Assembly: GCF_003096275.1 (NCBI RefSeq)
Contig: NZ_QENQ01000001.1
Location: forward strand, 3,866,009 to 3,930,008
Direction: 5' to 3'
DNA length: 64,000 nucleotides
From: Sphingomonas pokkalii
GTDB lineage: Bacteria; Pseudomonadota; Alphaproteobacteria; Sphingomonadales; Sphingomonadaceae
Shown: positions 8,042 to 34,180 of the stretch, piece after piece
How the letters are laid out: every line of letters begins with the position of its first letter
Position numbering within the stretch: position 1 is the first letter of the stretch
Made by a program: the position numbers and the translations under genes
Notes under the pieces: generated by a model
The model's input: the letters and a program-made list of their open reading frames with translations, nothing else
Database searches by the model: none
Told to the model about the DNA's origin: nothing

Positions 8042-8065
8042 CTTGTGAAAGCCCGGTTTCACAAG
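8042..8065. promoter_or_regulatory. Phage 24-bp palindrome, copy 1 (upstream of V)
   Basis: The sequence is CTTGTGAAA, a 6-base spacer GCCCGG, then TTTCACAAG. The arms are perfect 9-bp inverted repeats. It lies in the short gap between the stop of the 77-residue gene (8072) and V. Two more copies with identical arms lie at 12254-12277 and 21360-21383; see those entries. Confidence 0.65.
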
Positions 8066-12247: not shown

Positions 12248-12283
12248 GCGGTCCTTGTGAAATGTTGGTTTCACAAGGACCGC
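12248..12283. promoter_or_regulatory. Phage palindrome, copy 2, with extended 15-bp stem
   Basis: The shared 24-bp core is CTTGTGAAA, spacer TGTTGG, TTTCACAAG (12254-12277). Here the stem continues outward with GCGGTC on the left and GACCGC on the right, giving a perfect 15-bp stem with a 6-base loop. It lies between the stop of the secreted cargo gene (12308) and baseplate gene J. There is no T-run on either side, so it is not a standard intrinsic terminator. Confidence 0.65.
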
Positions 12284-21357: not shown

Positions 21358-21385
21358 GCCTTGTGAAATGCCGGTTTCACAAGGC
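21358..21385. promoter_or_regulatory. Phage palindrome, copy 3, between divergent O and P
   Basis: The core is CTTGTGAAA, spacer TGCCGG, TTTCACAAG (21360-21383), with two further pairs outward (GC and GC), an 11-bp stem in all. It stands between the divergent starts of scaffold O (21268) and terminase P (21432), about 60 bp from the P start. With no gene ending here, a terminator role is unlikely at this copy; an operator or activator site fits better. Confidence 0.7.
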
Positions 21386-21431: not shown

Positions 21432-23663
21432 ATGCATCCCGCCGACGAACCCCTGCCAGCTTCGACGATGCCCATACCCGTGGATGCGCGTCGCCAGGCG
21501 CGCAGCCTTTATTGGCGCTATTGGACGATCACCCAGATTGCCGAGGAGCTGGGGCTAAAGCGGGCCACCGTGGAAGCGTGGCGCGTGCGCGATCGGTGGG
21601 ACGACGCGCCAGCGCTCACAAAGATCGAGGACGCGATCGAGGCCCGCATCGTCGGGCTGATCGACAAGGACAAGAAGACCCCCGGCGATTTCAAGGAAAT
21701 CGACCTGTTGATGCGCGCCGTGACCAGTGCCGCGCGGGTACGCCGCTATGAAGCGCCGGGTGGGCACGAAGGCGACCTGAACGAAAGAGTCGCCAACCGG
21801 AACGCGGGCGAGAAGAAGAAGCCGAGAACCAACTATTTCACCCGCGAACAGGTGGAGGAGCTGGAGCGCATCTTCCACGACGAGCTGTTCGATTATCAGC
21901 GCGATTGGTGGGAGGCGCGCGACGAGCGCACCCGCATGATCCTGAAATCGCGCCAGATCGGCGCGACGTGGTATTTCGCGCGGGAAGCGCTGCTCGACGC
22001 GCTGCGCGGGCGCGGCAACATGATCTTCCTGTCCGCCTCGAAGAGCCAGGCGCATATCTTCCGCAACTACATCATCCAGTTCGCGGCGCGGGTGGGCGTG
22101 AAGCTGCAGGGCGATCCGATCGTGATCGATGCGGAAACGCTGCCCGAGGGCGAGGATCTGCCGCAGCTGATCTTCCTGGGCACCAATGCCCGCACCGCCC
22201 AGGGCTATCACGGCAATTTCTACTTCGACGAGTTCTTCTGGACCTATGGCTTCGAGGAGCTGAACAAGGTCGCCAGCGGCATGGCGATGCACAAGAAGTG
22301 GCGGAAAACCTACTTCTCGACGCCGTCGACCGTGGCCCATCAGGCGCACGCCTATTGGACCGGCGAGCGCCGCAACCGGCGGGTGAAGAAAGAGCAGCGC
22401 ATCACGATCGACGTGGGCCATGCCCGGCTGCGCACGGGCACGCGGTGCGAAGACAATGTGTGGCGCCAGATCGTGACGATCGAGGACGCGGAGGCGCGCG
22501 GTTGCGACCTGTTCGATCTGGATGAGCTGCGCATCGAATATGCGCCCGACGAATTCGCCAATCTGCTGCTCTGCCAGTTCGTCGACGACAGCCTGTCGGC
22601 CTTCAAGTTCAACGAGCTGCAAAAGGCGACGGTCGACGCCATGGTCGATTGGACGGACGTCAACCTGCTGGCGCCGCGTCCGGTCGGCAATCGCGCGGCG
22701 TGGGCGGGCTATGATCCGCAGGAGAGCGAGGACGGCGACAATGCCGCGCTGGTGATTGCGCTGCCGCCGGAAGGGCCGGGGGGCAAGTTCCGGCTGCTGG
22801 AGAAGCACCAGTTGCGCGGGCTGGATTACCAGGCGCAGGCGGAATTCATCCGCCAGCGGCTGGCGCGCTACAACTGCACCTATCTGGGCATCGACGCGAC
22901 CGGCATCGGATCGGCCGTCTATCAGCTGCTGCAGGACAAGGTGCGCGGCTGCACCAAGATCGAATATTCGCTCGAATCCAAGACCCAGATGGTGATGAAG
23001 GCGCAGCACAGCTTTTCGCGCGGCCGGATCGAGTTCGACGCGGGCTGGATCGACCTGCAGTCGAGCTTCCTGTCGATCAAGAAGGCGCTCACCAGCTCGG
23101 GCAAGGCGATCACCTTCAAGGCGAGCCGTGGCGGCGAAGATACCGGCCATGCCGATCTGGCCTGGGCGGTGATGCACATCCTGATCAACGAACCTCTGGA
23201 CGGCAGCGCGCGGCCGAAGACGCGCATGGAGATAGTCGATGGCGAAGCGGAACCGGGCGAGGGCGATGTCTCGGCAGGAAGCGGGAGCGGCCTTGTCTGG
23301 GGCGTTGGTGCCGGCGAACGATATGGCCGAGGCGGAGGGCCGCTCGGCGGGCATGTCATTCAGCTTCGGCGATCCGGAGCCGGTGCTGAGCCGGCGCGAA
23401 CTGCTCGACATGGCCGAATGCTGGCACAATGGCCGGTGGTACGAACCGCCGGTGCCACTCGACGGCCTGGCGCGCGCCTTCCGGGTTTCGCCGCACCACA
23501 GCAGCGCGATCATGCTCAAGCGCAACCTGCTGGTCGCGTCGTTCGCGCCGTCGGCGTTGCTCGGCACCGCTGCCTTCGAAGCGCTCGCCCAGGACTTTCT
23601 GGTGTTCGGCAACGGCTATCTGGAGGAGCAGCGCAACGTGCTGGGCGGCGTGCTGCGCTATAA
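21432..23663 (+). CDS. P: Terminase large subunit (P2 GpP) with abnormally long 3' overlap
   Basis: The packaging ATPase/nuclease. An N-terminal helix-turn-helix (about residues 27-50, YWTITQIAEELGLKRATVEAW) is followed by the variant Walker A KSRQIGATW (about 172-180), Walker B FYFDEFFW (about 263), and nuclease residues in GYDPQESEDGDN (about 426), GIDATGIG (about 486) and GHADLAWA (about 573). The family usually ends near residue 600, around MEIVDGEAE. Here the frame stays open another 140 codons inside the portal gene, giving 743 residues with an Arg/Gly/Ala-rich tail that looks out of frame. Either the stop is lost or a base error removed it. Confidence 0.85.
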   Translation: MHPADEPLPASTMPIPVDARRQARSLYWRYWTITQIAEELGLKRATVEAWRVRDRWDDAPALTKIEDAIEARIVGLIDKDKKTPGDFKEIDLLMRAVTSAARVRRYEAPGGHEGDLNERVANRNAGEKKKPRTNYFTREQVEELERIFHDELFDYQRDWWEARDERTRMILKSRQIGATWYFAREALLDALRGRGNMIFLSASKSQAHIFRNYIIQFAARVGVKLQGDPIVIDAETLPEGEDLPQLIFLGTNARTAQGYHGNFYFDEFFWTYGFEELNKVASGMAMHKKWRKTYFSTPSTVAHQAHAYWTGERRNRRVKKEQRITIDVGHARLRTGTRCEDNVWRQIVTIEDAEARGCDLFDLDELRIEYAPDEFANLLLCQFVDDSLSAFKFNELQKATVDAMVDWTDVNLLAPRPVGNRAAWAGYDPQESEDGDNAALVIALPPEGPGGKFRLLEKHQLRGLDYQAQAEFIRQRLARYNCTYLGIDATGIGSAVYQLLQDKVRGCTKIEYSLESKTQMVMKAQHSFSRGRIEFDAGWIDLQSSFLSIKKALTSSGKAITFKASRGGEDTGHADLAWAVMHILINEPLDGSARPKTRMEIVDGEAEPGEGDVSAGSGSGLVWGVGAGERYGRGGGPLGGHVIQLRRSGAGAEPARTARHGRMLAQWPVVRTAGATRRPGARLPGFAAPQQRDHAQAQPAGRVVRAVGVARHRCLRSARPGLSGVRQRLSGGAAQRAGRRAAL

Positions 23664-24318
23664 GCACGCCATCGCCAAATATACCCGGCGCGGGGTGGAG
23701 GAGGGGCGCTTCTTCTACGTGCCCGGCGGTCGCGACGAGATGGAGTTCGCGCCGGGTAGCGTGTTTCAGGTGCGCCAGCCCGATGTGAACCAGGAGATTT
23801 ATGGCGTGCCGGAATATCTGAGCGCGCTGCAGTCCGCGCTGCTGAACGAAGCCGCGACGCTGTTCCGGCGCCGCTATTATCTGAACGGCAGCCATGCCGG
23901 CTACATCCTCTACGCCACCGGTGAGATCGACCAGAAGGATACCGACGCGCTCAAGGCGGCGTTGAAAGCTTCGCGCGGGCCGGGCAATTTCCGGAACCTG
24001 TTCGTCCATGCGCCGAACGGCAAGGAAGGATCGCTCAAGATCCTGCCGATCGCGGAGGTGGGCGCGAAGGACGAATTCCTCGGCATCAAGAACGCGACGC
24101 GCGACGATGTGCTGGCCGCGCACCGCACACCGCCGCAGGTGCTGGGCATCGTGCCGGCCCAAGGGTCGAGCGGGTTCGGCAATCCGCTCCAGGCTGTCGA
24201 CATGTTCTTCGATCTGGAAATCGTGCCGCTGCAGGTGCGGCTACTGCAGCTTAACGAGCTGATCGGGCGCGAGGTGATCCGGTTCCGCGAGCGCAAGCCG
24301 ATGGCCGCCGTTGCCTGA
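23239..24318 (+). CDS. Q: Portal protein (P2 GpQ)
   Basis: A 359-residue portal protein (P2 Q is 344) that forms the DNA gate of the head. Typical sequence includes SFSFGDPEPVLSRRELLDM, HSSAIMLKRNLL, FLVFGNGYLEE and the C-terminal HRTPPQVLGIVPAQGSSGFGN. The ATG at 23239 lies inside the terminase gene in another frame. P and Q form the plus-strand packaging operon, divergent from O-N-M-L, as in P2. Confidence 0.93.
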   Translation: MAKRNRARAMSRQEAGAALSGALVPANDMAEAEGRSAGMSFSFGDPEPVLSRRELLDMAECWHNGRWYEPPVPLDGLARAFRVSPHHSSAIMLKRNLLVASFAPSALLGTAAFEALAQDFLVFGNGYLEEQRNVLGGVLRYKHAIAKYTRRGVEEGRFFYVPGGRDEMEFAPGSVFQVRQPDVNQEIYGVPEYLSALQSALLNEAATLFRRRYYLNGSHAGYILYATGEIDQKDTDALKAALKASRGPGNFRNLFVHAPNGKEGSLKILPIAEVGAKDEFLGIKNATRDDVLAAHRTPPQVLGIVPAQGSSGFGNPLQAVDMFFDLEIVPLQVRLLQLNELIGREVIRFRERKPMAAVA

Positions 24319-24461
24319 TTTTGCCGAAGGCGAATCGCCGCTTTCCTACAGCCTGTCGGGTGTGCCAGCCCTGGGAGTATCCGCCGGTCGCAGTGCGCCA
24401 GCGGGTGCAATCGCGTCGCTGATCAGCGACGCCCACCCCCAGAAGAGGCAAAGCTTCCACC
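24319..24461. other. Gap after Q: candidate cos region
   Basis: These 143 bp separate the portal stop from the methyltransferase. In P2 the cos site lies just beyond the 3' end of Q, so this is where the packaging site is expected. The segment GCCGCTTTCCTAC near 24337-24349 is only loosely like the P2 cos core, and I do not claim a cut position. The right part holds a perfect palindrome (24413-24432). Confidence 0.3.
24413..24432. promoter_or_regulatory. 20-bp perfect palindrome centred on GATC
   Basis: The left arm GCGTCGCTGA and the right arm TCAGCGACGC are exact reverse complements, with GATC at the centre (24421-24424). It lies 30 bp before the start codon of the adenine methyltransferase, a good position for an operator controlled by binding, methylation or both. 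The match of a GATC centre to a Dam-like gene is suggestive but the enzyme's target is not known. Confidence 0.55.
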
Positions 24462-25307
24462 ATGTTGAGTGCCGTAACCCCCGTTTCCCCCGCCGCCGGC
24501 TATATCGGCGGCAAGCGCAATCTCGCGGGCCGCATCACCCGGATTATCGAACAGGTCGACCATCAGCTCTATGCGGAGCCCTTTGTCGGCATGGGTGGGA
24601 TCTTTCTCCGCCGCCGCCAGCGCCCCAAGGCGGAAGTGATCAACGACGTGAGCGGCGACGTCGTGACATTCTTCCGTGTGCTGCAGGAGCATTATCCGTA
24701 CTTCGTCGATATGCTGAAATTCCGGGTGGCGAGCCGGGGTGAGTTCGAGCGCCTGCGCGCGATGCCCGCGGATCGGCTGACCGATCTGCAGCGGGCGGCG
24801 CGGTTCTTGTATCTGCAGCGGCTTGGATTTGGCGGGCGCGTGCATGGCCGGACCTTCGGTGTCGATGCCAGCCAGGGCGCGCGATTCAATGTCACGAAGC
24901 TGGAGCCGCTGCTGGCCGATATTCACGATCGCCTGGCCGGGGTGGTGATCGAGCAGCTGCACTATTCCACCTTCATCACCCGCTATGATCGCCCTCGCGC
25001 GCTTTTCTACCTCGATCCGCCCTATTGGGGATGCGAGACCGACTATGGCCAGGACGTGTTCGGGCGCGAGGACTTCGAACGGCTCGCCGCCCAACTCGGC
25101 ACCATGAAGGGCAAGTTCTTGCTGTCGCTGAACGATACGCCCGGCGTGCGGGAAGTGTTCGGTGCATTCGGCATCATGCCGGTCGAAACGACCTATACGG
25201 TGAGCAGGGGAAATGCCTCAAAAGCGGGCGAGCTGCTGATTGCGAACTTCGCGATCGGGAGTAACACAGCTTCATGCGTCCGCGCCGGCCAAGGCTTATC
25301 GAAATAG
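24462..25307 (+). CDS. DNA adenine-N6 methyltransferase, D12 class (Dam-like)
   Basis: A 281-residue enzyme that transfers methyl from S-adenosylmethionine to adenine. Motif X is AGYIGGKRNLA (residues 12-22), motif I is AEPFVGMGGIFL (38-49) and catalytic motif IV is FYLDPPYWG (about 181-189). Between IV and the end there is LLSLNDTPGVREVF. The target-recognition part is in the middle (ARFLYLQRLGFGGRVHG). Typical D12 enzymes are 260-290 residues, so it is full length. No restriction enzyme is nearby, so a solitary phage methyltransferase (protection from host restriction or regulation) is likely. Confidence 0.88.
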   Translation: MLSAVTPVSPAAGYIGGKRNLAGRITRIIEQVDHQLYAEPFVGMGGIFLRRRQRPKAEVINDVSGDVVTFFRVLQEHYPYFVDMLKFRVASRGEFERLRAMPADRLTDLQRAARFLYLQRLGFGGRVHGRTFGVDASQGARFNVTKLEPLLADIHDRLAGVVIEQLHYSTFITRYDRPRALFYLDPPYWGCETDYGQDVFGREDFERLAAQLGTMKGKFLLSLNDTPGVREVFGAFGIMPVETTYTVSRGNASKAGELLIANFAIGSNTASCVRAGQGLSK

Positions 25308-25319
25308 AGTTTGTGGTGC

Positions 25320-25355
25320 TGGCCATCCTTTCCCTTATCGCGGGAGGGATGGCCA
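25320..25355 (+). terminator. Hairpin between convergent genes, candidate terminator
   Basis: TGGCCATCC at the left and GGATGGCCA at the right form a perfect 9-bp outer stem, with CCC/GGG pairing further inside. It starts 13 bp after the methyltransferase stop, and a gene converges from the other side. Only a weak T-rich stretch follows (CTCTCGGCTTTTG), so termination efficiency is uncertain. Confidence 0.5.
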
Positions 25356-25379
25356 TCTCTCGGCTTTTGAGCGCCCTGT

Positions 25380-25604
25380 TCAGATAAGTTCCGTAGGGCG
25401 TGCGTAATAGATGGTGTAGGGCGTGCCTGCATCGAAAGCGCGGATACATGCAATCTTTGCTGCGTTGGCTTCGCTGAAAAAACCACAATGAACTTCGTTC
25501 CCGTCGAATACGTTGAAGCAACCCTTCTGTTCATAAATCCAAAATTCCACAGTTACGACTCCATTTGTTGGAGCCGGGATGCTCGATATAGTATCAGGCA
25601 GCAA
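25380..25604 (-). CDS. Hypothetical protein, 74 aa
   Basis: A small, markedly AT-richer gene than its surroundings. The product has VTVEFWIYEQKGCFNVFDGNE, then AAKIACIRAFDAG and a Tyr-rich end. The only near start is TTG at 25604, four bases after the stop of the zinc-ribbon gene, so translation would be coupled. It converges on the methyltransferase gene. The composition suggests a recently acquired accessory gene; function unknown. Confidence 0.5.
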   Translation of the reverse strand: MLPDTISSIPAPTNGVVTVEFWIYEQKGCFNVFDGNEVHCGFFSEANAAKIACIRAFDAGTPYTIYYARPTELI

Positions 25605-25607
25605 CTC

Positions 25608-25910
25608 TTATCTGCGAAGGCCGCGGATTAATCTCTCCCACTGTTCTTCGTTGTTGGGAAATCGATTAGGCGCGGTCGGCTCTTGGGCACATGGCCGCGC
25701 TCTGGCGCTGGCGGGGCGGCCGCCGCACTGCAAGCAGTAGAGATGGTCGCGGAGCAGGTGCAGCGCTGTCGGCCAGCGGTGGCACCGATACCACCGCTCC
25801 AGGCGCCGCGCGTCGATCACAGCGCTGTGCCCGCACCCACATTGGACCAACACGTTGAAGCCCCGGCGGGTGATATCGCCGAGCGTGTCATAGCGATGAT
25901 TCGCGCTCAT
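25608..25910 (-). CDS. Zinc-ribbon-like protein, 100 aa
   Basis: Cysteines and histidines are arranged as metal ligands: Cys24, Cys26 and His28 (QCGCGH), Cys43 and His44, then Cys59 and Cys62 (YCLQCGG). The segment between them is basic and helical (DARRLERWYRCHRW). Such a small zinc protein could bind nucleic acid. P2 Ogr is also a small zinc-finger protein, but the Cys spacing is different and the position is different, so I do not call it Ogr. The ATG at 25910 starts MSANHRYDTLGDI. Confidence 0.65.
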   Translation of the reverse strand: MSANHRYDTLGDITRRGFNVLVQCGCGHSAVIDARRLERWYRCHRWPTALHLLRDHLYCLQCGGRPASARARPCAQEPTAPNRFPNNEEQWERLIRGLRR

Positions 25911-26164
25911 GGGTGAGCATCACCGAAGTCGGGTTGCGAATGAAACATAACAAGAACATTATTGGGCGATGCGCGCCCGAGTCTACAACCTGCACGATCC
26001 GCGACTCTCCCAAACCCGCAGTTCTCCCGCGCGACCGGGAAAGGCTAAAACTGGGACGAAGCCGCCGTTCCCATGCTTCCGGTTAAGCGTCACCTTTCGC
26101 CAAGAGCCGACGTGGAGCGCTTATCCCCGGATCGTGCGTTTAGGTCTGAAGTCGGGTGGGTGCG

Positions 26165-26824
26165 CTAGACTTCGGTAGATGGACGTGTGGCAGCGTCATG
26201 CTCGAATGCGATGATCTTCACTGCGCTGCGGCGACGAAACAGCCTTGCGACCGCGCGAGCTCCCGTTCGCGTCCAACGGACAAGAGGACCGTGCAGAAGC
26301 TTGTCGCGTTCGTACCGAAAATGCAGTGTAGCTTCCCAGACATACCGGATTGATGAATGCACGTTTGAGGCAGGCTCGATCCGCCGGTTGCGTAGCGTGG
26401 TCTCGATGTCTCCCAACGCCAACGGCAGAGCCATAATCCATTCGACGACGCCGACCGCAGCGGCATCATTGAGCGACAGGGTTTGGATCCCTGCTATCGC
26501 TCTACGCACTATCGACAGCCCAATCTCGATCTGGCCGCCCGATGTTTCGCGGAAGTCGTCATCCGTGCTGTCATCATAGATCGGCACGGCCTCGATTGCC
26601 TCAACTAGCCCGATGAGGAAGGTCAATATGCCGATGGCCTTTGCGCGTCCGGCCCGACCAGCGCGGGTGGACTGGATGATAACGAACCAGAGCGCGCCGA
26701 CGGTACCGATCGCCGCAAGTGCGTCCCAGTTGAACCAGCTCGTCATATCGGAGAGGAACGACCAGATCGGGCGGAGCCATTCGGGCGGATGTTTCACCAG
26801 CCAAGGCTCCAGAAGCGTCGCCAT
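26165..26824 (-). CDS. Membrane protein of unknown function (cassette gene 3)
   Basis: A 219-residue protein with two adjacent membrane helices, about residues 35-52 (LAAIGTVGALWFVIIQS) and 63-80 (AIGILTFLIGLVEAIEA). A soluble C-terminal domain of about 135 residues follows (RETSGGQIEIGLSIVRRAI; WEATLHFRYERDKLLHGPL). It is the last gene of a three-gene minus-strand set, 39 bp after the previous gene. No family is recognised. Base composition is lower in GC than the phage structural genes. Confidence 0.65.
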   Translation of the reverse strand: MATLLEPWLVKHPPEWLRPIWSFLSDMTSWFNWDALAAIGTVGALWFVIIQSTRAGRAGRAKAIGILTFLIGLVEAIEAVPIYDDSTDDDFRETSGGQIEIGLSIVRRAIAGIQTLSLNDAAAVGVVEWIMALPLALGDIETTLRNRRIEPASNVHSSIRYVWEATLHFRYERDKLLHGPLVRWTRTGARAVARLFRRRSAVKIIAFEHDAATRPSTEV

Positions 26825-26863
26825 GTTTCAGTCATGTCGCGCTATTCCTGCTGTTGTCCGAGT

Positions 26864-27529
26864 TCATAGCGGGGCAGCCTGCGCTGGGCCGGTCGTTGCG
26901 GCGGGGAGGTCGATAAATTCCAGCCAGAGTGTGCGAGCATAATGTTCGCCGAAACGGCGCATCCGCCAGACCGCCGCGCAGAGCATCACCCCGAGTACGA
27001 TCAAAAGCGTGGTCTGTCCGCGATGGGCAAAGATTGACCAGCCGAGCGCGAGTGTCGACGCAGCCACCAAGCCTCGAAAAAGCCCGTACGTACGGCTAAA
27101 CGTATCGATGCGGGCAGATCTCCCGGCAGCCTGCACGCGCGTATAGGCGCGTGCCGTGATGGCGCGGAAAACCGGATATGGAACGCTATCCAGTTTGGCG
27201 CTCTCGCCTTCCATGGCGACCAGCCTGGCGTCTAGAATCTTCCGTTGCGCCGGCGAGATCAGCCGCTGCTCGGCATTGCGGACATAGCTGCTCGGCAGGC
27301 CCCGAAACAACCAAACTGGAGCCTCGACTAGATTACCAAAAGCCTGGATCAGATGTCCAAGTACAAAAGCGACCATCACGAAAAGCCCCAAATCGCCGAC
27401 GGTTAGTCCGTCGCCATTCACGAATCTCTTGAACAGCGGAACCTCCGAGGCGAGCAGCAGCGCCACCAGCGTACCGGGTGTTATGATGCCAATGACCTCG
27501 TAGGGGTCGAAACTCTTGCTGGTTTCCAT
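26864..27529 (-). CDS. Four-helix membrane protein of unknown function (cassette gene 2)
   Basis: A 221-residue protein. It begins METSKSFDPYEVIGIITPGTLVALLLA, in which an ITPG turn sits at the start of the first membrane helix. Further hydrophobic segments lie at about residues 45-62, 150-168 and 172-188, with a soluble loop of about 85 residues between helices 2 and 3 (NAEQRLISPAQRKILDARLVAM). The ATG at 27529 is 4 bp after the stop of the MBL-fold gene, so the two are almost certainly co-translated. Function unknown; proteins with this short N-terminal topology often accompany soluble sensor or nuclease partners in accessory regions. Confidence 0.65.
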   Translation of the reverse strand: METSKSFDPYEVIGIITPGTLVALLLASEVPLFKRFVNGDGLTVGDLGLFVMVAFVLGHLIQAFGNLVEAPVWLFRGLPSSYVRNAEQRLISPAQRKILDARLVAMEGESAKLDSVPYPVFRAITARAYTRVQAAGRSARIDTFSRTYGLFRGLVAASTLALGWSIFAHRGQTTLLIVLGVMLCAAVWRMRRFGEHYARTLWLEFIDLPAATTGPAQAAPL

Positions 27530-27533
27530 CTTG

Positions 27534-28439
27534 TCACTGACCGAGCGGCGCGAAGATGTTGCGCCGGATACCGGGTTTGGGCGCCGCCAGTGCAGCGAGT
27601 GCCGATTGCCTGGATGGAGTTACGAGATAGCTGCTGTCGGCGGCGACATCGATCGTAATTGACCCGTCGCACCGCGTGGTCATCACCTTGCGGCGCGGCT
27701 GGCCGAAGAGACCTACCGGCTTCGACAGATCGGGGATGCCTATCGTTCGATTCGCGTACCAATCGCGAGTTTCCTGCGTACCGTGCTTCTTGGGCCCGTC
27801 GGAGAAGATCACCAACTCCGGCTTGCAGAAGTTGAAGACTTCTTCGCAGCATCCATTCTCGCGGCCGTGATGCGATGCGACATAGACCTGCGTGGTTGCC
27901 AGTTTCGCAGCAAAGCCCGGCATGCGTAGCAGTTTGCGCCAGCCGGGTCGCTCAAGGTCGCCGCCGAACAAGATGGTGAAGCCGCCGAAGGACACAAACA
28001 CCGCGAGGCTTAAATTGTTGGTGTCTCGAAAGTCGACACCGTAGCGGTTCCAATAGGCCTGCCACCTCACACCGCCTAGATCGTTCGACCAATCGCCGAG
28101 AAAACCTGCACCGTGCTGCTGAAAAATCTCAGTCGCCTTGGTGACTCCGCCCCTCATCCCGCCGAATACCTTCATCGTCCGAAGCGCCTGTGCATCGACC
28201 GTTGGATTGCTAACGATGGCGCCGAGCGGGCAGTTGTTCCAAAGCGAGGAAAGATCCTCGCAATGATCCTCGTCGAGGTTCAGCAGCATCAACGTATCAA
28301 TGCGCTCGCTGTGGTAGGCGATAGACGGGAACCAGGAGCGGTTGAGGCTGAGGCCGCAATCGAGCATTATCCGGTGGCCGGCCGGCCCGGTGACGACAGC
28401 GCAGCCGCCATGATCGACATCGTGAATCTGAATCCGCAT
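27534..28439 (-). CDS. ComEC/Rec2-like metallo-beta-lactamase-fold protein (cassette gene 1)
   Basis: A 301-residue soluble MBL-fold protein resembling the C-terminal domain of ComEC. Recognisable points are IQIHDVDHGGCAVV and MLDCGLS at the start, LNLDEDHCEDL at about residues 53-63, LFGGDLERPGW at about 158 and VASHHGRENG at about 187. The usual THxDxDH is altered: the first His position is Asn/Leu while the Asp-x-Asp-His part is kept. No channel domain is present, so it is not a DNA-uptake ComEC. With the two membrane proteins behind it, it forms a compact accessory operon in a P2 prophage cargo region. A hydrolase for a nucleotide or nucleic acid is the most likely activity. Confidence 0.75.
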   Translation of the reverse strand: MRIQIHDVDHGGCAVVTGPAGHRIMLDCGLSLNRSWFPSIAYHSERIDTLMLLNLDEDHCEDLSSLWNNCPLGAIVSNPTVDAQALRTMKVFGGMRGGVTKATEIFQQHGAGFLGDWSNDLGGVRWQAYWNRYGVDFRDTNNLSLAVFVSFGGFTILFGGDLERPGWRKLLRMPGFAAKLATTQVYVASHHGRENGCCEEVFNFCKPELVIFSDGPKKHGTQETRDWYANRTIGIPDLSKPVGLFGQPRRKVMTTRCDGSITIDVAADSSYLVTPSRQSALAALAAPKPGIRRNIFAPLGQ

Positions 28440-28909
28440 GTGCCGCCCCGCATCTAGCGCTGTGCATCAACGTAACCTGTGGCGGTGCCGTCATGACACC
28501 TAATCCAGCCCCGTAACAATAAGGCGTGTTCCCGACTTGTTCAACCATCGTGGAAGGGCCGCATGGCGCGGCGATGGAAATTCGGCTATCGCCCCGCATT
28601 GGCTATCGCCCGAATTTTCCAAGTCGACTTGATCTCACCCCGATTACTGACGCGCCCTGCCTTAGATCGAGCGGGAGCCGCGAGTGCGGAATAACAATTG
28701 CCAGCCACTACCGCAGATGAAGCGAGCAGGGCAGCCAATGACCGCTTTCGGCCTGAGCGGTCGTTCCCACCCGCTCATGGGAACGGCGTACTCTGGTCGG
28801 CAGCCGTCGGTGCCGAATTTCGCATTCTGGTGGAAAGCGGACCGCCCGTTGTTCGGCGGGTTGCCATCGTCTGCAACGATCCGCTGATGGTCAACGTCGA
28901 GCGAAGACC
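28440..28909. other. Non-coding 470-bp stretch with repeat copy A
   Basis: I see no convincing gene here. The left third is AT-richer and may hold the promoter of the MBL cassette. From about 28669 onward it consists of repeat copy A and, from about 28826, sequence shared with 60.82-60.94 kb that leads into the 3' end of the SRPBCC gene. Confidence 0.6.
28669..28815. repeat. Direct repeat copy A, left of the SRPBCC gene
   Basis: About 145 bp, diverged but clearly alignable with copy B (29408-29560). Shared blocks are CGGGAGCCG, then GCCAATG(A/G)CCGCTTTCGGCC followed by GAGCGGTCGTTCC, then GCT-ATGGGAACGGC. The CCGCTTTCGGCC(T/C)GAGCGG block is itself a small hairpin. Orientation is the same in both copies. 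Confidence 0.7.
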
Positions 28910-29335
28910 TTAACGCGCGGATACCGCCTCTGCGCGCTTTTGATAGTTGGACAGGATGGCTTGCCACCCCTGCTGCTGCATCTCGGCCGCGTTCTCGGAC
29001 TCAGCGTCAAACGTGGTCGTCACGACAGTTCCGGCTGCAGACGGCTGAAAGGTCGTGCGGCTCTGTCGCCCATCGCCAAGTAAGATCGTCAGGGCGCGTG
29101 GGGCGTCGACTTCAGCGTAGGTACCTTCGAAGTCGAACCCAAAGCTTCCGTCTTTCGCTTCCATTCGCGCCTTGTGGACTCCGCCGACCTGGAGATTCGT
29201 TGTTGCCGTCGGGCAGTGCCAGTCATCATTGGCGAAGTTCCACCGGGTGATCTCACTGGGATCTGTGTAGACGCGCCATGCCTCCTCGGGAGAAAGAGGC
29301 ACCTCGGTCGTCACGGTGATCTTCTGCGTAGGCAT
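28910..29335 (-). CDS. SRPBCC / AHSA1-type protein
   Basis: A 141-residue START-like domain protein with a hydrophobic ligand pocket. The family pattern is ITVTTEVPLSPEEAWRVYTDPSEITRWN at the start, GSFGFDFEGTYAEVDAPRALTILLGDGR in the middle and a C-terminal helix ending LSNYQKRAEAVSAR. Its ligand is unknown. It lies between two direct repeats of about 145 bp, and a relic of the same gene end occurs at 60896-60937 outside the prophage. It looks like a chromosomal-type gene rather than a phage gene. Confidence 0.85.
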   Translation of the reverse strand: MPTQKITVTTEVPLSPEEAWRVYTDPSEITRWNFANDDWHCPTATTNLQVGGVHKARMEAKDGSFGFDFEGTYAEVDAPRALTILLGDGRQSRTTFQPSAAGTVVTTTFDAESENAAEMQQQGWQAILSNYQKRAEAVSAR

Positions 29336-29407
29336 GTCTCACTCCCATGTTGGGGTCGGAAATCACAGCATAACGCAAGCCGCAGGCGGGCGCATGTCCG
29401 CTATTGG

Positions 29408-29560
29408 GGCGGGAGCCGCCAGTGTGGAAAATCGATTCCCGGGCAATGCCGCCGATCAAGGGATTGGAGCCGCCAATGGCCGCTTTCGGCCCGAGCGGTC
29501 GTTCCAGGCCGCTGATGGGAACGGCCTGAGTTGGTCGCAAGCCTCCGCGACCCCGAACGC
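29408..29560. repeat. Direct repeat copy B, right of the SRPBCC gene
   Basis: Partner of copy A (28669-28815), same orientation, with the blocks GGCGGGAGCCG, GCCGCTTTCGGCC, GAGCGGTCGTTCC and GATGGGAACGGC in the same order. The stretch just before it (29344-29407, CCCATGTTGG through GGGCGCATGTCCG) also occurs at 60937-61000. Confidence 0.7.
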
Positions 29561-29928
29561 GCGCTTTTCCCCCCGCCTCGCCCGCCCGCTTTTCGTGTCG
29601 CTTTTGATGCGGCGAGATCTCGGTGAGGCCAGCGCAGAGGGGCACGCAGACACCCGTGATGCGATTTGATGCAGTCCGGCCTAGTTTGCCGGGGCCTACC
29701 ACCTAACCGCGGGCAGATCCGCAGAAGCTGGCATGGCACGCTTTGTGCTCGTCCCCCACGATAGCCATCGGGCGGCGCAAGCCGCCCGGTCCTGAACGCC
29801 GCACTGGGCGATCAGGGTGGTGAAGCGTGGGCACGCTGGGGCTTGGGGGACAATCAAACTGCGCATGGGCTCGCTCAAGCGAGCCCATTCCTCCTCATCT
29901 TAATTTCTCAGGGTGGACAGAGCACATT
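29561..29928. other. Non-coding stretch between repeat B and the winged-helix gene
   Basis: No supported gene. A minus-strand frame of about 55-60 codons (29696-29878) exists, but it lacks a ribosome site and any recognisable pattern. A strong hairpin lies at 29865-29888. Confidence 0.5.
29865..29888. terminator. Strong hairpin downstream of the winged-helix gene
   Basis: ATGGGCTCGCT and AGCGAGCCCAT are perfect 11-base arms separated by CA (10-bp stem with a 4-base loop in practice). On the minus strand it lies 40 bp after the stop of the winged-helix gene at 29929, where a terminator is expected, but no T-tract follows on that strand. On the plus strand TCCTCCTCATCTTAATTT follows. Confidence 0.45.
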
Positions 29929-30777
29929 CTATGTACTCGCGCTTTCGCGAAGGGCGACACCGGCGCCGAGGGCAGCGAGCGCCTGGCGCAAAGCGGGGTC
30001 TTGCGGCTCGCGGGTGGCGCGGCCGGCGATCGCCTTGGGGACGCTACCCAAGCGGCGGAGCTTCATCACCAGGAGCTGACAGTAGCGCTGGAAAACCCGC
30101 CCGGCCATCTTGGCCCGATGCTCGAAATAATAGGCGTTGCTGGTCTGCTCGCGCTGTGGGGCAAACTCGCCTTCGTTGGCGGTTTTGACCGTGCGGCGCA
30201 CCCAAGCGATGAAGCCGTGGTCGCGGAGGCGCTGAAGCGCGGCGATCACGCTGTTGCGGTGGCAGCCGGCACGATCGGCGATCGTCTCGATCGCGGGGAA
30301 CAGTCGACCAGTGGCGAAGTCGATCGTCTGAAGAAGTGCCTCGAGCACGGTGATGTCGATGCGCCGCAACCGCCCGTCCGCCGCCCGCAGGTAGCCGCTG
30401 ACCTTCCCTAGCTCTTGGCGGAGAAGGGCAGGGCGCCCCGGCGCGGCCTCGCCGCCGGCGACGTATTGGTCGAGCTCGGCCGAAAGTGCGGCGTGCCGTT
30501 GGCGCGCTTCGCGAACCTCAGCGAGGGGGTATTCCCGCCAGAGAAGCTGGAACAGTTCCTTCGCAGTCTGGATCAGCGCCTCGCGGTGCGCGATGCCTTG
30601 GCCGACGCTGCCGTCGCCGATCGGCCGCCAGGGCTTGGCCCGCGCGTCGTCCACGTCATAGCTGTCGCGGTGCGGCGTGCGGCGCTTGCCCTCGGGATCG
30701 TGATCCGGGCCCCGCGTCTTGCCCTGCAGACTGGCGCTCACGCCCTTGAGGATCTGGCGTACGGAGCGGACCGTCAT
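29929..30777 (-). CDS. Winged-helix protein resembling plasmid/island replication initiators
   Basis: A 282-residue basic protein. A winged helix-turn-helix lies at about residues 165-200: LFPAIETIADRAGCHRNSV is the helix-turn-helix, and LQRLRDHGFIAWVRR provides the following helix and wing. The N-terminus is charged and probably disordered; a helical region precedes the DNA-binding domain. Proteins of this layout occur beside P4-type integrases in alphaproteobacterial islands and resemble plasmid replication factors. The gene lies 16 bp after the integrase stop, in the position where P2 has C, cox, B and A. It may be the element's regulator or replication initiator; which one is inference. 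Confidence 0.65.
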   Translation of the reverse strand: MTVRSVRQILKGVSASLQGKTRGPDHDPEGKRRTPHRDSYDVDDARAKPWRPIGDGSVGQGIAHREALIQTAKELFQLLWREYPLAEVREARQRHAALSAELDQYVAGGEAAPGRPALLRQELGKVSGYLRAADGRLRRIDITVLEALLQTIDFATGRLFPAIETIADRAGCHRNSVIAALQRLRDHGFIAWVRRTVKTANEGEFAPQREQTSNAYYFEHRAKMAGRVFQRYCQLLVMKLRRLGSVPKAIAGRATREPQDPALRQALAALGAGVALRESAST

Positions 30778-30793
30778 GCGCGGCCCCCCGACG

Positions 30794-32083
30794 TCAGCGT
30801 TTCCGTATACGCGCGCCCCGCATGACGAGGTCGGCCGGTGCCGGCATGCCCTTCATGAGCATGTCCCCCCAGCTCTGCCCGATATCCCGGCGTCGCCCCA
30901 TATAGAGCGAGCGGTTGTAGACCACCTCCACGCCACCAGGGATATGCGCGAGCATCATGTCGATAATCTCGCGATCCGTGAGGCGATCGTCGAGCGCCGC
31001 CTGTTCGTTCATGATGGTCGAGAAGCTCGCACGCCAGCCATGCGGAACATGGCGGCCGGTAAGCCCCGCGTCGCGATATCGCCGGCTGATCGTGCTGTTC
31101 GAGATCGGCTTGCGCGGATCGGAATACCCGGGGAACAGATAGGTGCTGCCGGATAGCTCCAGCGCCAGCTTCACGACCGCCGCTGCATGCGTGGAAAGCG
31201 GGATTACAAACTCGTAGGCCAAGTCGCGCTTCTGCTTGCGCGTCAGCTTCATCTTCGCGGCCGGAATGCGCCAGATCGGATTGGACGTGTCCAGCTGCTC
31301 GAACTCGCCCCGCTCCGCCAGCTGCACCACGCCAGGGCGCGCTGCCGTCAGTGCCAGCAGCCGAGAGGCGAGAAGTGTTCCCCAATAGACCGGCGCAGAC
31401 TCGACGGCGACGAGCGCGGAACGTGCCGCCTCGATCTTCGTCTGCGCGGGACGGAGCTTGGGCGAACGAGCGACGAGGGCTTTGCTGATGATCGCAGCCG
31501 GATCCATCATGCCGCGACCAGTCGCGATCGCATGCACGAAGACATCCGAAATGTGCGAGCGCACGCGGTGCGCCATTTCGATCGCCCCGGTCTCCTCTAC
31601 CGCGCGAACTACCTCCAGCACCAAGGGCGCGGTGATTTCCGTAATCGGCAGCGTGCCTAGATCCGGGAACACGTGTCGCTCGAGGCGCTCCATGATCTGC
31701 TGGCTGTATCTGGCGTCCAGCGATCGCGCGCGAATCTGGTGAAGCTCCCGTGCTATCGATTCGAAGGTCACTTGCGCGGTGACCGACGCGGCCGCGCGCT
31801 GCTGACGGCGACGAACACCCGGATCGATTCCCTCGCGAAGCAGCTTTCTCGCTGCATCTCGCGCTTCGCGCGCCTCCAGCAGCGTAACCTCGGGGTAGGT
31901 GCCCAGCACCAGCTTCCGTTCGACCTGCCCGGGCTTGCTGTCCGGCCGGGCCCCGAATCGGTACTTGAACCGCCAGGACTTCGCACCCGCCGGTGTCACG
32001 TAAAGATAGAGCCCGTTGGCGTCCGTAAGCTTGTAGGGTTTCTCGCGCGCCGCCGCTTTCCGGCACTGCAAGTCGGTAAGCAC
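30794..32083 (-). CDS. int: P4-type tyrosine integrase
   Basis: A 429-residue site-specific recombinase. The DUF4102 arm-binding domain is at the N-terminus (LTDLQCRKAAAREKPYKLTD, then GLYLYVTPAGAKSWRFKYRF). The catalytic domain shows Arg in LTAARPGVVQLA (about 249), His-x-x-Arg in VPHGWRASF (about 346-350), and His plus Tyr in LAHIPGGVEVVYNRSLY (Tyr about 388). The GTG at 32083 with GGGGGAA upstream gives the usual family N-terminus; longer frames up to 32167 read into the tRNA-proximal region. It is next to tRNA-Asn, the probable attachment target. Confidence 0.92.
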   Translation of the reverse strand: MLTDLQCRKAAAREKPYKLTDANGLYLYVTPAGAKSWRFKYRFGARPDSKPGQVERKLVLGTYPEVTLLEAREARDAARKLLREGIDPGVRRRQQRAAASVTAQVTFESIARELHQIRARSLDARYSQQIMERLERHVFPDLGTLPITEITAPLVLEVVRAVEETGAIEMAHRVRSHISDVFVHAIATGRGMMDPAAIISKALVARSPKLRPAQTKIEAARSALVAVESAPVYWGTLLASRLLALTAARPGVVQLAERGEFEQLDTSNPIWRIPAAKMKLTRKQKRDLAYEFVIPLSTHAAAVVKLALELSGSTYLFPGYSDPRKPISNSTISRRYRDAGLTGRHVPHGWRASFSTIMNEQAALDDRLTDREIIDMMLAHIPGGVEVVYNRSLYMGRRRDIGQSWGDMLMKGMPAPADLVMRGARIRKR

Positions 32084-32232
32084 AATTCCCCCCAGCTGCA
32101 GCCCCCAGCGAGGCCCCCAGATTGGTGGCCCTAGCATGAATAGCCGTGACCGTCGCTGACCGCGCAATGTCGCGAAAATGTGAGTATTTCAAGGGGTGAG
32201 GACCGGTCGTAACCGGCCCTGACAACAGCAGA

Positions 32233-32307
32233 TGGCTCCCCGAGTAGGATTCGAACCTACGACCATTCGATTAACAGTCGAATGCTCTACCGCTGAGCTA
32301 TCGGGGA
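32233..32307 (-). tRNA. tRNA-Asn (anticodon GTT)
   Basis: On the minus strand the gene reads TCCCCGATAGCTCAG at its 5' end. The D arm follows, then an anticodon stem-loop GACTGTTAATC with anticodon GTT, a T arm GGTTCGAATCC and the acceptor end TCGGGGAGCCA. The acceptor stem pairs TCCCCGA with TCGGGGA and CCA is encoded. The integrase lies immediately beyond the 3' end, so the phage attachment core should be within the tRNA 3' half. Confidence 0.95.
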
Positions 32308-32390
32308 CCACTCTGGTCAACCCCTCGGCGGTGGGTCACCGCGTCGGGAGGCGCGCCTATAGCAGTGGATTTTCGGACATTGCAAGGGCC

Positions 32391-33167
32391 TTATGCAATG
32401 AATTGTTCCATCGTTATCCGATCGTCCAGCGCGTGCTCGGGATCGAACAGCAAGGTCAGGTCCCGCATCCGATCGATTTCGACGTGAACATGCGCCACTT
32501 CGCGAATCTCGCGCTGATCCGCGACGGCGCTTACCGGGCGTTTTTCCGCCTCCAGTACGCGGATATCGATGCGGCTTTTCTCGGGCAGGATCGCGCCTCG
32601 CCAGCGCCGGGGGCGGAACGGGCTGATCGGCGTGAGGGCCACCAGCGCCGATCCCAGCGGAAGAATCGGTCCCTGCGCCGAAAAATTATAGGCGGTGGAG
32701 CCCGCGGGCGTGGCGACGAGAATGCCGTCGCATACCAGTTCCGGGATCACGATCCGGCCGTTGATGGTGACTTCCAGCTTCGCCGTCTGGCGGGTTTCGC
32801 GCAGCAAAGATGCTTCGTTGATCGCAGGCAGAACGCACGTCTCGCCCTCGACCGTCGTCGCCGTCATCGCCAGCGGGGCGACTCGGAAGGGCCGAGCGCG
32901 TTCCAGCCGCTGGATCAGCCCGTCGAGCCGCCAATCGTTCATCAGGAAGCCGACGGTCCCCAGATTCATGCCGAACACGGGCAGTAGCCGGCGGCGTTCC
33001 AGCATCGCGTGCAGCGTCTGCAGCATAAAGCCGTCGCCACCCAGCGCCACGACCTCCTCGGCGGCATCGACCGGCACCCAGTCATAGGTCTGGCGCAGTT
33101 CCTCTGCGGCCGTCTGTGCGGGCGGCGTCGGGGATGCCAGCAATGCACGCGGCTTGGGCCCGCTCAT
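32391..33167 (-). CDS. nadK: NAD kinase
   Basis: A 258-residue ATP-NAD kinase that makes NADP. The diagnostic GGDG motif is at residues 43-46, Asn-Glu at 117-118 (PAINEAS), the catalytic-region Asp in LVCDGILVATPAGSTAYN (145-162) and the Gly-rich tail SAQGPILP. Length is typical of alphaproteobacterial enzymes. The start overlaps the stop of moaA (ATGA, 33164-33167), so the two are translationally coupled. Confidence 0.95.
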   Translation of the reverse strand: MSGPKPRALLASPTPPAQTAAEELRQTYDWVPVDAAEEVVALGGDGFMLQTLHAMLERRRLLPVFGMNLGTVGFLMNDWRLDGLIQRLERARPFRVAPLAMTATTVEGETCVLPAINEASLLRETRQTAKLEVTINGRIVIPELVCDGILVATPAGSTAYNFSAQGPILPLGSALVALTPISPFRPRRWRGAILPEKSRIDIRVLEAEKRPVSAVADQREIREVAHVHVEIDRMRDLTLLFDPEHALDDRITMEQFIA

Positions 33168-34180
33168 CCGCCGGTCACGCTCATATGGCGGGCAACGGCC
33201 GGTGCGGCGCCAGCCTCGATGCGGAAATCATGGCGCTCCGGCTTGGCGGCAAGGGCTCGATCGATCGCTTCGTCCACGGCGTGTATTCCCCCCTCCCGGA
33301 TCGCTTTTTTCAGGTCCACCGAATCCTCGTGGCCCAGGCACATATGCAGTCTGCCATCGGTGGAAAGCCGAACGCGGTTGCAGGTTGCACAGAAATTGTT
33401 GGTGAGCGGCGAGATCAGCCCGAGCCGGCTGCCGCTTTCGTCGATTCGCCAATAGCGGGCGGGGCCGCCGCTGTCATGGCTGTCGGGGGCCAGCGCGAAT
33501 CGCGGCTTGAGCCGCGCCATCACCTCGGTCAGCGGCAGGAAGCGATCGGCGCGATCCTCATCGATCCTGCCCATCGGCATGGTCTCGATCAGCGAAAGGT
33601 CCATGCCGTTCGCCACGACCCAGGCTAGCATCGACGGGATCTCGTCCTCGTTCAGCCCGCGTAGCGCGACCATGTTGATCTTCACGCGAAGTCCGGCGAT
33701 TCGGGCAGCCTCGATCCCCGCCAGCACCTGCGCGACGTCACCGTGGCGGGTGATATGGCGAAACATCGCCGGATCGCGGCTGTCGAGGCTCACATTCACC
33801 CGGCGCACCCCTGCCGCGAACAGCCCTTCGGCATGATCGGCCAGTCGCGTCGCGTTGGTGGTCAGGGTCAGTTCGGCGAGGCCCTGGCCGATCTGGCGGC
33901 CGAGCTGCTCGACCAGCGTCATCATGTTCCGGCGGACGAGCGGTTCGCCGCCGGTCAGGCGAATCTTGGTCACGCCGCGCGCCACGAATCGCTCCGCGAT
34001 TTGCGCCAGCTCCTCCAGGCGGAGCACGGCATCGCGCGGCAGGAACTGCATATGCTCGGCCATGCAGTAGCGGCAGCGCAAGTCGCAGCGATCGGTTACC
34101 GAGATGCGCAGATACCGAATCGCGCGTCCATGGCGATCGACCAGCGAAGGCGGCGTCGCGAGGGCGGGGGCGCTGGCCAT
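33164..34180 (-). CDS. moaA: GTP 3',8-cyclase MoaA (molybdenum cofactor synthesis)
   Basis: A 338-residue radical SAM enzyme that converts GTP to 3',8-cyclo-dihydro-GTP, the first step of molybdopterin synthesis. The SAM cluster cysteines are Cys32, Cys36 and Cys39 (CDLRCRYC), the SAM-binding GGEP is at 77-80, and the second cluster uses Cys264, Cys267 and Cys281. The protein ends in the Gly-Gly needed by MoaA. ATG 34180 follows GGAGG-like sequence; the long upstream open frame is discarded because it runs through the divergent EAL gene. It is coupled with nadK. Confidence 0.95.
   Translation of the reverse strand: MASAPALATPPSLVDRHGRAIRYLRISVTDRCDLRCRYCMAEHMQFLPRDAVLRLEELAQIAERFVARGVTKIRLTGGEPLVRRNMMTLVEQLGRQIGQGLAELTLTTNATRLADHAEGLFAAGVRRVNVSLDSRDPAMFRHITRHGDVAQVLAGIEAARIAGLRVKINMVALRGLNEDEIPSMLAWVVANGMDLSLIETMPMGRIDEDRADRFLPLTEVMARLKPRFALAPDSHDSGGPARYWRIDESGSRLGLISPLTNNFCATCNRVRLSTDGRLHMCLGHEDSVDLKKAIREGGIHAVDEAIDRALAAKPERHDFRIEAGAAPAVARHMSVTGG

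What the first reader, a model, noticed from the sequence alone, without database searches (positions are those of the whole stretch)
26165..28439. Compact accessory operon: ComEC-like MBL protein plus two membrane proteins
Three minus-strand genes with 4-bp and 39-bp gaps code for a soluble MBL-fold protein without a ComEC channel, a four-helix membrane protein and a two-helix membrane protein with a soluble domain. They lie between the packaging genes and the integrase, the side where P2 carries tin and old, and they are lower in GC than the structural genes. The first His of the MBL metal motif is altered. A sensor/hydrolase paired with membrane effectors is a common design in phage-borne defence or exclusion systems. 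I know no named system with this exact composition.
Basis: inference. Interest (0 to 1): 0.65.

Follow-up and report, generated by a model that had tools for sequence, protein, structure and literature searches.

The report
Prophage ComEC-like nuclease with membrane partner
A bacterial virus dormant in a chromosome carries a soluble relative of a DNA-cutting competence enzyme next to a four-helix membrane protein, a pairing that recurs in other bacteria, often near defence genes, and is probably an untested anti-phage system.

Summary
In detail: three minus-strand genes, gaps 4 and 39 bp, GC about 0.60 against 0.66, between portal/terminase and integrase of a 40.3-kb P2-like prophage in tRNA-Asn. 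They are not one conserved three-gene system. The conserved unit is the pair MBL + 4-TM protein; the third gene looks coding but has no relative in any collection searched. The MBL matches PADLOC's unpublished candidate PDC-M48B (E 1e-57); its closest solved fold is the ComEC nuclease domain. The 4-TM protein's family includes members that match PADLOC's PDC-M48A and Csx27 models; the window copy matches neither. Of 93 related loci, 65 carry one of two membrane-protein families beside the MBL, and 27 an E2-E1-JAB homologue. The altered first metal histidine is a family trait: NxDxDH in 80 of 91. Two related prophages carry Septu or R-M-like genes in the same slot. Best reading: a two-gene anti-phage module in which the 4-TM protein anchors and controls a metal-dependent DNase. 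Defence is likely; the mechanism is inferred. It is a diverged variant of a candidate for which no test was found; its partner-swapping design resembles the protease-MBL modules shown in 2025.

The parts
27534..28439 (-). ComEC-like MBL protein, 301 aa (PADLOC PDC-M48B family), proposed effector nuclease
   Evidence: PDLC04674 E 1e-57; AlphaFold2 pLDDT 91.2; best PDB fold 9ic4, ComEC MBL domain, E 3e-15, TM-score 0.72 by target length, 0.64 by query length
28263..28280 (-). metal motif N54-L-D56-E-D58-H59 (NxDxDH)
   Evidence: NxDxDH in 80 of 91 readable family members; aligned to HxDxDH of ComEC
27861..27875 (-). motif S189-H-H-G-R193, second metal/substrate site (role by analogy with ComEC)
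   Evidence: H190, H191, G192 and R193 invariant in the 26-row alignment, S189 nearly so
26864..27529 (-). four-helix membrane protein P2, 221 aa (family A, Csx27/PDC-M48A-like), proposed anchor and sensor
   Evidence: homologue directly after the MBL in L024 (63%), L004 (58%), L043 (37%); pLDDT 86.7; middle loop 11 K/R against 5 D/E, so probably cytoplasmic
26165..26824 (-). membrane protein P3, 219 aa, orphan; membership of the system unproved
   Evidence: coding signal; no relative
25608..25910 (-). 100-aa prophage gene that marks one edge of the cargo slot
   Evidence: found in 4 of 17 related prophage stretches
29929..30777 (-). replication-initiation-like gene that marks the other edge of the slot
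   Evidence: PHROG replication initiation hits, best E 6e-6; found in 10 of 17 related prophage stretches
30794..32167 (-). prophage integrase
   Evidence: phrog_1 E 3.4e-34
32221..32252 (.). right attachment repeat at the 3' end of tRNA-Asn; the other 32-bp copy begins 8.08 kb left of the window
   Evidence: exact 32-bp direct repeat, spacing 40,300 bp
23239..24318 (+). prophage portal protein
   Evidence: phrog_68 E 1.4e-136

Best explanation
A prophage-borne, two-gene anti-phage (or superinfection-exclusion) module. The MBL is a soluble, metal-dependent deoxyribonuclease related to the ComEC nuclease domain. The four-helix protein P2 sits in the inner membrane, holds the MBL at the membrane and keeps it inactive until phage entry or membrane disturbance is sensed; the released or activated nuclease then degrades incoming phage DNA, or all DNA in the infected cell. 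P3 is a lineage-specific extra. Shown: gene anatomy, homology, recurrent pairing, conserved metal site, defence genes beside several relatives. Inferred: binding of P2 to the MBL, nuclease activity, trigger and outcome.
For: PDC-M48B match. A ComEC MBL domain is the best profile hit (9ic4, E 4e-16) and fold in the PDB, and that domain is a Mn-dependent nuclease (PMC12455585, passages). MBL nucleases of Hachiman and AVAST are defence DNases (PMC12799240, abstract, passages, sections 8-9). D56, D58, H59 and H190, which correspond to metal/catalytic residues of ComEC, are kept; NxDxDH in 80 of 91. The MBL has a membrane-protein neighbour in 55 of 85 loci where the simple gene caller kept it, against 18 of 206 other 250-400-aa genes in the same loci (Fisher p 3e-22). 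P2's family: 15 of 21 members match Csx27 and up to 7 a PDC-M48A model at E <= 0.05, against 1 of 21 (E 0.045) and 0 of 21 for the other membrane family. Same slot in two related prophages: Septu PtuA/PtuB; Eco57I-type methylase + GmrSD_N. A 17-20-aa P2-like remnant (70%) directly follows the MBL in L005/L023 (short, E 0.011 and 0.001, and the two loci have identical MBLs).
Against: No phage or nuclease assay. N in place of the first metal histidine could lower or change activity. P2 itself matches no PADLOC, Pfam, NCBIfam or PHROG model and its model has no convincing PDB match. In 28 of 93 loci neither family A nor family B was found beside the MBL, although 11 or so of these have another membrane protein there. 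Neighbours of only 11 of the 93 loci were scanned with family libraries, picked by me, and no random control for defence genes was run. The pair is rare: a single-sequence search found a P2 relative in 2 of 396 genomes of the order, one of them the window's own. No MBL relative was found in the 50,697 phage records.
Confidence: 0.5

Rival explanations
1. The membrane protein is the toxic effector (a pore or depolarising channel, as shown for Csx28, another accessory protein of type VI-B CRISPR), and the MBL is the sensor or switch that restrains it or processes a signal.
For: P2's family matches the Csx27 model; Csx28 forms an octameric pore (PMC12669027, passage); the MBL keeps an almost invariant site, which also suits a signal hydrolase.
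Against: The closest solved relatives of the MBL are nuclease domains of ComEC and defence MBLs act as effectors (PMC12799240). The MBL is constant while the membrane partner differs (A 3, B 3, other 2 within a 100/99-supported clade of 8), which fits an effector with exchangeable controllers better.
Confidence: 0.2
2. The MBL is a phosphodiesterase acting on envelope or lipid head groups, like the pneumococcal phosphorylcholine esterase Pce/CbpE, and the pair alters the cell surface so that phages cannot enter.
For: Pce/CbpE is the next-best fold after ComEC and a strong profile hit (E 4e-12; E 1e-11); the prophage location suits exclusion.
Against: The MBL has one weak hydrophobic stretch (142-160) that the model makes beta-strand; no signal-peptide tool was run. 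The positively charged loop of P2 suggests that a soluble partner would act inside. PADLOC's nearest named relatives are LmuA, RTasMBL and Avs1a.
Confidence: 0.1
3. Not defence: an accessory module that serves the prophage or other mobile elements (DNA transfer, stability, lysogenic conversion).
For: Relatives lie on plasmids, several near integrases, recombinases or transposases; never tested.
Against: E2-E1-JAB homologues in 27 of 93 loci; SIR2, type I R-M, DUF499, DUF1156, AAA_14 and Eco57I genes beside single relatives; defence cargo in the same prophage slot.
Confidence: 0.15
4. The three genes do form one system and P3 is an essential, fast-diverging third component.
For: Same strand, 39-bp gap, same GC and codon signal; a membrane protein.
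Against: No P3 relative in the loci of the other 92 MBLs (best E 0.18 by phmmer; none by tblastn); the pair occurs without it in L004, L024 and L043.
Confidence: 0.2

Closest known systems
PADLOC candidate system PDC-M48 (PDC-M48A + PDC-M48B families), unpublished
   Same: MBL matches PDC-M48B at E 1e-57; members of P2's family match PDC-M48A down to 8e-65
   Different: P2 itself matches no PDC-M48A model; no test of the candidate was found (no paper of the library contains 'PDC-M48'; no bioRxiv held); PADLOC's own rule for the system was not seen
E2-E1-JAB triple-module operon with MBL (Iyer et al. 2006, group 6a, PMC1779556, passages)
   Same: 27 of 93 loci with this MBL have an E1/E2/JAB homologue, including the near relatives L020-L023
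   Different: the window stretch 22001-34000 has no such gene
Trypsin-MBL and caspase-MBL gated nucleases (Hachiman, AVAST, Lamassu, DRT, Canu; PMC12799240)
   Same: ComEC-like MBL recurrently paired with a controller and moved among unrelated defence systems; LmuA/Avs1a similarity of the family
   Different: partner is a membrane protein, not a protease; no disordered insertion in the model apart from the C-terminal tail; NxDxDH site
ComEC/Rec2 MBL domain
   Same: fold and most catalytic residues
   Different: no channel or OB domain; first metal His replaced by Asn
Csx27 (type VI-B CRISPR accessory membrane protein)
   Same: 15 of 21 members of P2's family match its PADLOC model, best E 7e-7
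   Different: window P2 does not; CRISPR context was not examined
Kiwa (KwaA + KwaB)
   Same: design: inner-membrane sensor plus soluble DNA-binding partner (PMC12904381, passage)
   Different: only 1 of 21 family A members touches KwaA (E 0.0047); MBL instead of KwaB

Membership tests
PDC-M48 (PADLOC) | MBL component PDC-M48B | tested here: met
   E 1e-57, residues 1-267 of 301
PDC-M48 (PADLOC) | membrane component PDC-M48A | tested here: not met
   P2 gives no PDC-M48A hit at E <= 1; kinship to members is shown only through its family. Not filed as a full member
E2-E1-JAB + MBL operon (group 6a) | E2-E1-JAB protein in the same operon | tested here: not met
   window chain is MBL-P2-P3 only and no E1 homologue in 22001-34000; own-genome search with PF14457 found none, but its controls rang nowhere, so absence from the genome is open
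ComEC | MBL domain homologous to ComEC | tested here: met
ComEC | competence/channel transmembrane domain | tested here: not met
   301-aa MBL-only protein
protease-gated MBL nucleases | adjacent trypsin- or caspase-like protease | tested here: not met
   P2 and P3 have no Pfam hit at E <= 1; genes further away were not scanned for proteases
protease-gated MBL nucleases | two disordered gating insertions over the active site | tested here: not met
   every block of ten residues up to 280 has mean pLDDT 82 or more; only the C-terminal tail is disordered. By confidence only, coordinates were not inspected
Csx27 | sequence match to the Csx27 profile | tested here: inconclusive
   15 of 21 family members match, window P2 does not
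Csx27 | Cas13b / type VI-B CRISPR locus | not tested
   no CRISPR search was run
Kiwa | KwaA and KwaB | tested here: not met
   no KwaA or KwaB hit for the three window proteins at E <= 1
any anti-phage system | protection against phage in vivo | not testable with these tools
   needs plaque assays

The most novel reading that the evidence does not exclude
A widespread, partner-swapping defence module: ComEC-type nucleases with a mostly fixed NxDxDH metal site, each controlled by an inner-membrane protein drawn from at least two families with no detectable kinship (a Csx27-like one and a so far unlisted 'SLKSLNMKW' one), and repeatedly taken up by E2-E1-JAB and other defence neighbourhoods. 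It would be the membrane-controlled counterpart of the protease-gated MBL nucleases, and would suggest a role for Csx27-type proteins as membrane sensors that license an effector.
Probability: 0.35. Interest if true: 0.8.

Novelty: new variant of a known kind. Interest (0 to 1): 0.55.

Why it matters
If right, MBL + membrane protein is a general way of arming a DNase at the cell envelope, parallel to the protease-gated MBL nucleases described in 2025, and it gives a testable partner-based hypothesis for Csx27-like proteins and for the unexplained MBL gene of bacterial ubiquitin-like operons. It is also a compact two-gene system for laboratory test, and it shows that the lost histidine is no sign of a dead gene: the change is shared by 80 of 91 relatives read.

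Tried and rejected
P2 fold search in the PDB: no match with E <= 0.001 by Foldseek; VIA-align 2 gives only generic helical matches, best Z 6.8. The A3 profile against PDB sequences: one match, E 0.5, not accepted. Link between membrane families A and B: hhalign probability 37 (E 4e-4), not accepted. Idea that the altered histidine marks a decaying gene: rejected, the motif is shared (the scan that collected 80 of the loci used patterns allowing N or H there, so the share is no unbiased census). Idea that the cassette travels with this phage group: MBL, P2 and P3 give no tblastn hit (E <= 1e-4) in the 17 related prophage stretches fetched (L136, L141 and L144 are only 8.2, 6.0 and 2.9 kb). P2 relatives in genome G343 lie at contig ends, truncated, with unknown neighbours. 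Sigma-70 and terminator scans gave about what shuffles give. Rows dropped: L103 had no MBL by profile; seven short or partial MBLs were left out of the tree; two MBLs had no letters at the motif columns; eight MBLs were not kept by the simple gene caller in the adjacency test. Some loci end at contig ends (for example L054, L083), so a missing partner there means little. BREX paper PMC12839542: Csx27 occurs only in its reference list (passages). Literature searches: 9 of 10 used; for those with many hits only the listed rows were seen.
Full report
What is there. Three minus-strand ORFs lie at 27534-28439 (MBL, 301 aa), 26864-27529 (P2, 221 aa) and 26165-26824 (P3, 219 aa) with gaps of 4 and 39 bases. 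Their GC is 0.596, 0.598 and 0.595; the window's is 0.662. Codon usage trained on 14 other genes of the window is positive only in the stated frame of each gene, and negative in the stretches on either side, so P3 is probably a real gene although no relative was found.

Where it lies. The neighbours are terminase, portal and a DNA methyltransferase on one side and a replication-initiation-like gene and integrase on the other; further left are scaffold, capsid, baseplate, tail fibre, sheath and tape-measure genes. The integrase abuts tRNA-Asn, and a 32-bp copy of the tRNA's 3' end lies 40,300 bases to the left, outside the window. The genes are therefore cargo of an integrated P2-like prophage.

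The slot. A portal search of 201 genomes of the genus, the own one included, found matches in 64; the best others are 89-90% identical, and many of the weakest (E above 1e-6) are probably other portal families. Seventeen stretches with portal and downstream DNA were fetched. None of the 17 gives a hit to MBL, P2 or P3. The 100-aa gene that flanks the cassette was found in 4 of 17 and the replication-like gene in 10 of 17; both are in 3 (L147, L149, L150). In two of these three the stretch between them holds defence genes: L147 has Septu PtuA (E 1e-160) and PtuB (E 1e-70); L150 has an Eco57I-type methyltransferase (E 5e-109), a GmrSD_N protein (E 5e-21) and a PDC-S33 match (E 3e-8). In L149 three ORFs between the methyltransferase gene and the 100-aa gene had no PADLOC match. 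L136, whose slot edges were not found, has a trypsin-like protease beyond its methyltransferase gene (E 2e-13). ORFs of 13 of the 17 stretches were listed, and ten ORFs from four of them were scanned with PADLOC. This is a variable cargo slot that has taken defence genes at least twice.

The MBL. PADLOC names it PDC-M48B (E 1e-57); weaker matches are LmuA (5e-5) and Avs1a (0.035); over 26 members all match PDC-M48B, 23 LmuA, 17 RTasMBL and 4 Avs1a. PDC families are unpublished PADLOC candidates, with validation pending for most (PMC12988326, passages; PMC11514479, passages). Pfam and NCBIfam give only matches under their cut-offs, Lactamase_B_2 and ComEC. A 26-row profile finds the ComEC MBL domain 9ic4 best in the PDB (E 4e-16), and the AlphaFold2 model (mean pLDDT 91.2) finds the same entry first (E 3e-15, TM-score 0.72 by target length, 0.64 by query length); pneumococcal phosphorylcholine esterase is next. 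In that ComEC the motif is H-x-D-x-D-H with Mn-dependent nuclease activity (PMC12455585, passages); here it is N-L-D-E-D-H, aligned position for position. Across 93 loci (the window, 8 plasmid loci, one genome locus, 80 loci, 3 viral contigs) 91 could be read at these columns: NxDxDH 80, HxDxDH 6, HxHxDH 5. D27, D161, H190, H191 and R193 are nearly constant. The change is a family trait, not decay. The collecting patterns allowed N or H at that place, so the share depends on the search.

The partner. The MBL is usually beside a membrane protein. With a simple gene caller, 55 of the 85 MBLs that it kept (of 93) have an adjacent same-strand protein of 140-310 aa with two or more membrane segments, against 18 of 206 other genes of 250-400 aa in the same loci (Fisher p 3e-22; near-identical loci were not thinned out). 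A looser search found a membrane ORF of any length from 120 aa near the MBL in 72 of 93. Profiles built from these proteins assign family A (P2-like) in 27 and family B in 38 of 93 loci, 65 together (same strand, within 1.3 kb; the profiles were built from members, so one search is the independent test). The two families show no convincing relation. P2 belongs to family A by sequence: phmmer E 2e-79 to L004, 9e-39 to L043, 9e-6 to L011, 1e-4 to L094. In a 17-row alignment Y10, G19, G58, R152 and R189 are invariant. Of 21 family A members 15 match PADLOC's Csx27, and up to 7 match one PDC-M48A model (E <= 0.05; best E over the three models 8e-65); of 21 family B members 1 matches Csx27, weakly (E 0.045), and none PDC-M48A. 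P2 itself matches none of these. Homologues of P2 lie directly after the MBL in L024 (63%), L004 (58%) and L043 (37%). In L005 and L023, which carry an E2-E1-JAB operon and identical MBLs, 17-20 residues like the start of P2 follow the MBL (70%; E 0.011 and 0.001), probably a trace of the same pair. P2's model is confident (pLDDT 86.7), finds no convincing PDB match, and its long middle loop is positively charged (11 K/R, 5 D/E), so probably cytoplasmic.

Neighbourhoods. E2-E1-JAB homologues occur in 27 of 93 loci, the arrangement described as group 6a in 2006 (PMC1779556, passages). In scans of picked neighbours (proteins from 11 of the 93 loci, no census and no random control) single loci showed SIR2 (L026), type I R-M (L005, from its annotation), DUF499 (L048), a type I specificity protein (L077), an Eco57I methylase (L090), and a SNF2 helicase, AAA_14 and DUF1156 methyltransferase on either side of the pair (L043); family B proteins, the 266-aa gene of L004 and the ATPase of L024 gave no Pfam match above the cut-off. 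In the MBL tree the window lies in a clade of 8 (support 100/99; 6 distinct sequences) in which the membrane partner is family A in 3, family B in 3 and another in 2; that other one, in L005/L023, joins family A only by single-linkage clustering. So the MBL stays and the partner changes.

P3. No relative in plasmids (E <= 0.01), phages (E <= 0.1), viral contigs (close relatives only), 295 other genomes of the order, or the loci fetched. The genome-contig collection was not searched for it, its one scan having gone to the MBL. P3 may be a passenger or a lineage-specific addition.

Rarity. A P2 relative occurs in 2 of 396 genomes of the order, the window's own included (single-sequence search); the MBL itself in 2 of 61 relatives, the second only a partial match at 35%; the PDC-M48B model finds 5 of 289 genomes of the class, three of them weakly; MBL relatives are in 19 plasmid records, in no phage record of 50,697, and in 4 viral contigs, three of them confirmed by profile.

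How it most likely works. By homology the MBL is a metal-dependent DNase; by design it resembles the MBL nucleases that are held inactive and released by a trypsin- or caspase-like partner in Hachiman, AVAST and Canu (PMC12799240: abstract, passages, sections 8 and 9). Here the partner is a membrane protein, and the model gives no sign of gating insertions. The simplest reading is that P2 anchors and restrains the MBL at the inner membrane and activates it on phage entry, much as KwaA senses infection and brings KwaB to the injection site in Kiwa (PMC12904381, passage). Trigger, binding and cutting are inference.

Novelty. The kind (ComEC-like MBL with a partner in defence loci) is known. The pair exists as a PADLOC candidate; 'PDC-M48' is in no paper of the library, and searches for MBL with a membrane partner or Csx27 showed no description in the rows listed (bioRxiv is not held, and subscription journals mostly are not). 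New here, as far as seen: the diverged P2 branch, the shared NxDxDH site, family B as a second partner without a convincing PADLOC match, partner swapping, and the prophage slot.

Noticed in passing
window 8043-8064, 12255-12276, 21361-21382: A perfect palindrome TTGTGAAA-N6-TTTCACAA three times between prophage late gene blocks (0.02 expected by chance; none in the 18 kb to the left); perhaps the site of a phage late-gene regulator.
   Followed up: partly
window 28735-28762 and 29473-29500: An intergenic repeat (GACCGCTNNGGCCGAAAGCGGNCATTGG), two copies flanking the gene 28910-29335 beside the cassette (0 expected); by eye, similar strings stand before the MBL in L004.
   Followed up: partly
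L147 6637-11470, L150 3342-8819, L136 1-5590, L149 2013-7615: The same region in related prophages carries Septu, an Eco57I-methylase/GmrSD_N set, a trypsin-like protease beside a 557-aa gene, and unidentified cargo including a 167-aa protein with five hydrophobic segments: a promising place to look for new defence genes.
   Followed up: partly
L058 5843-6520 and family B members: Family B, a conserved membrane protein (SLKSLNMKWLV) near the MBL in 38 of 93 loci, has no convincing PADLOC match in 21 members and no Pfam match in the 2 members scanned.
   Followed up: partly
L048 4009-4965, L071 4022-4978, L046 3094-4086: Several loci carry a second, divergent MBL protein directly before the first, after a membrane protein.
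   Followed up: no
L004 7568-9048: In Polymorphobacter the MBL-P2 pair is followed by two other uncharacterised genes (266 and 227 aa) in place of P3.
   Followed up: no
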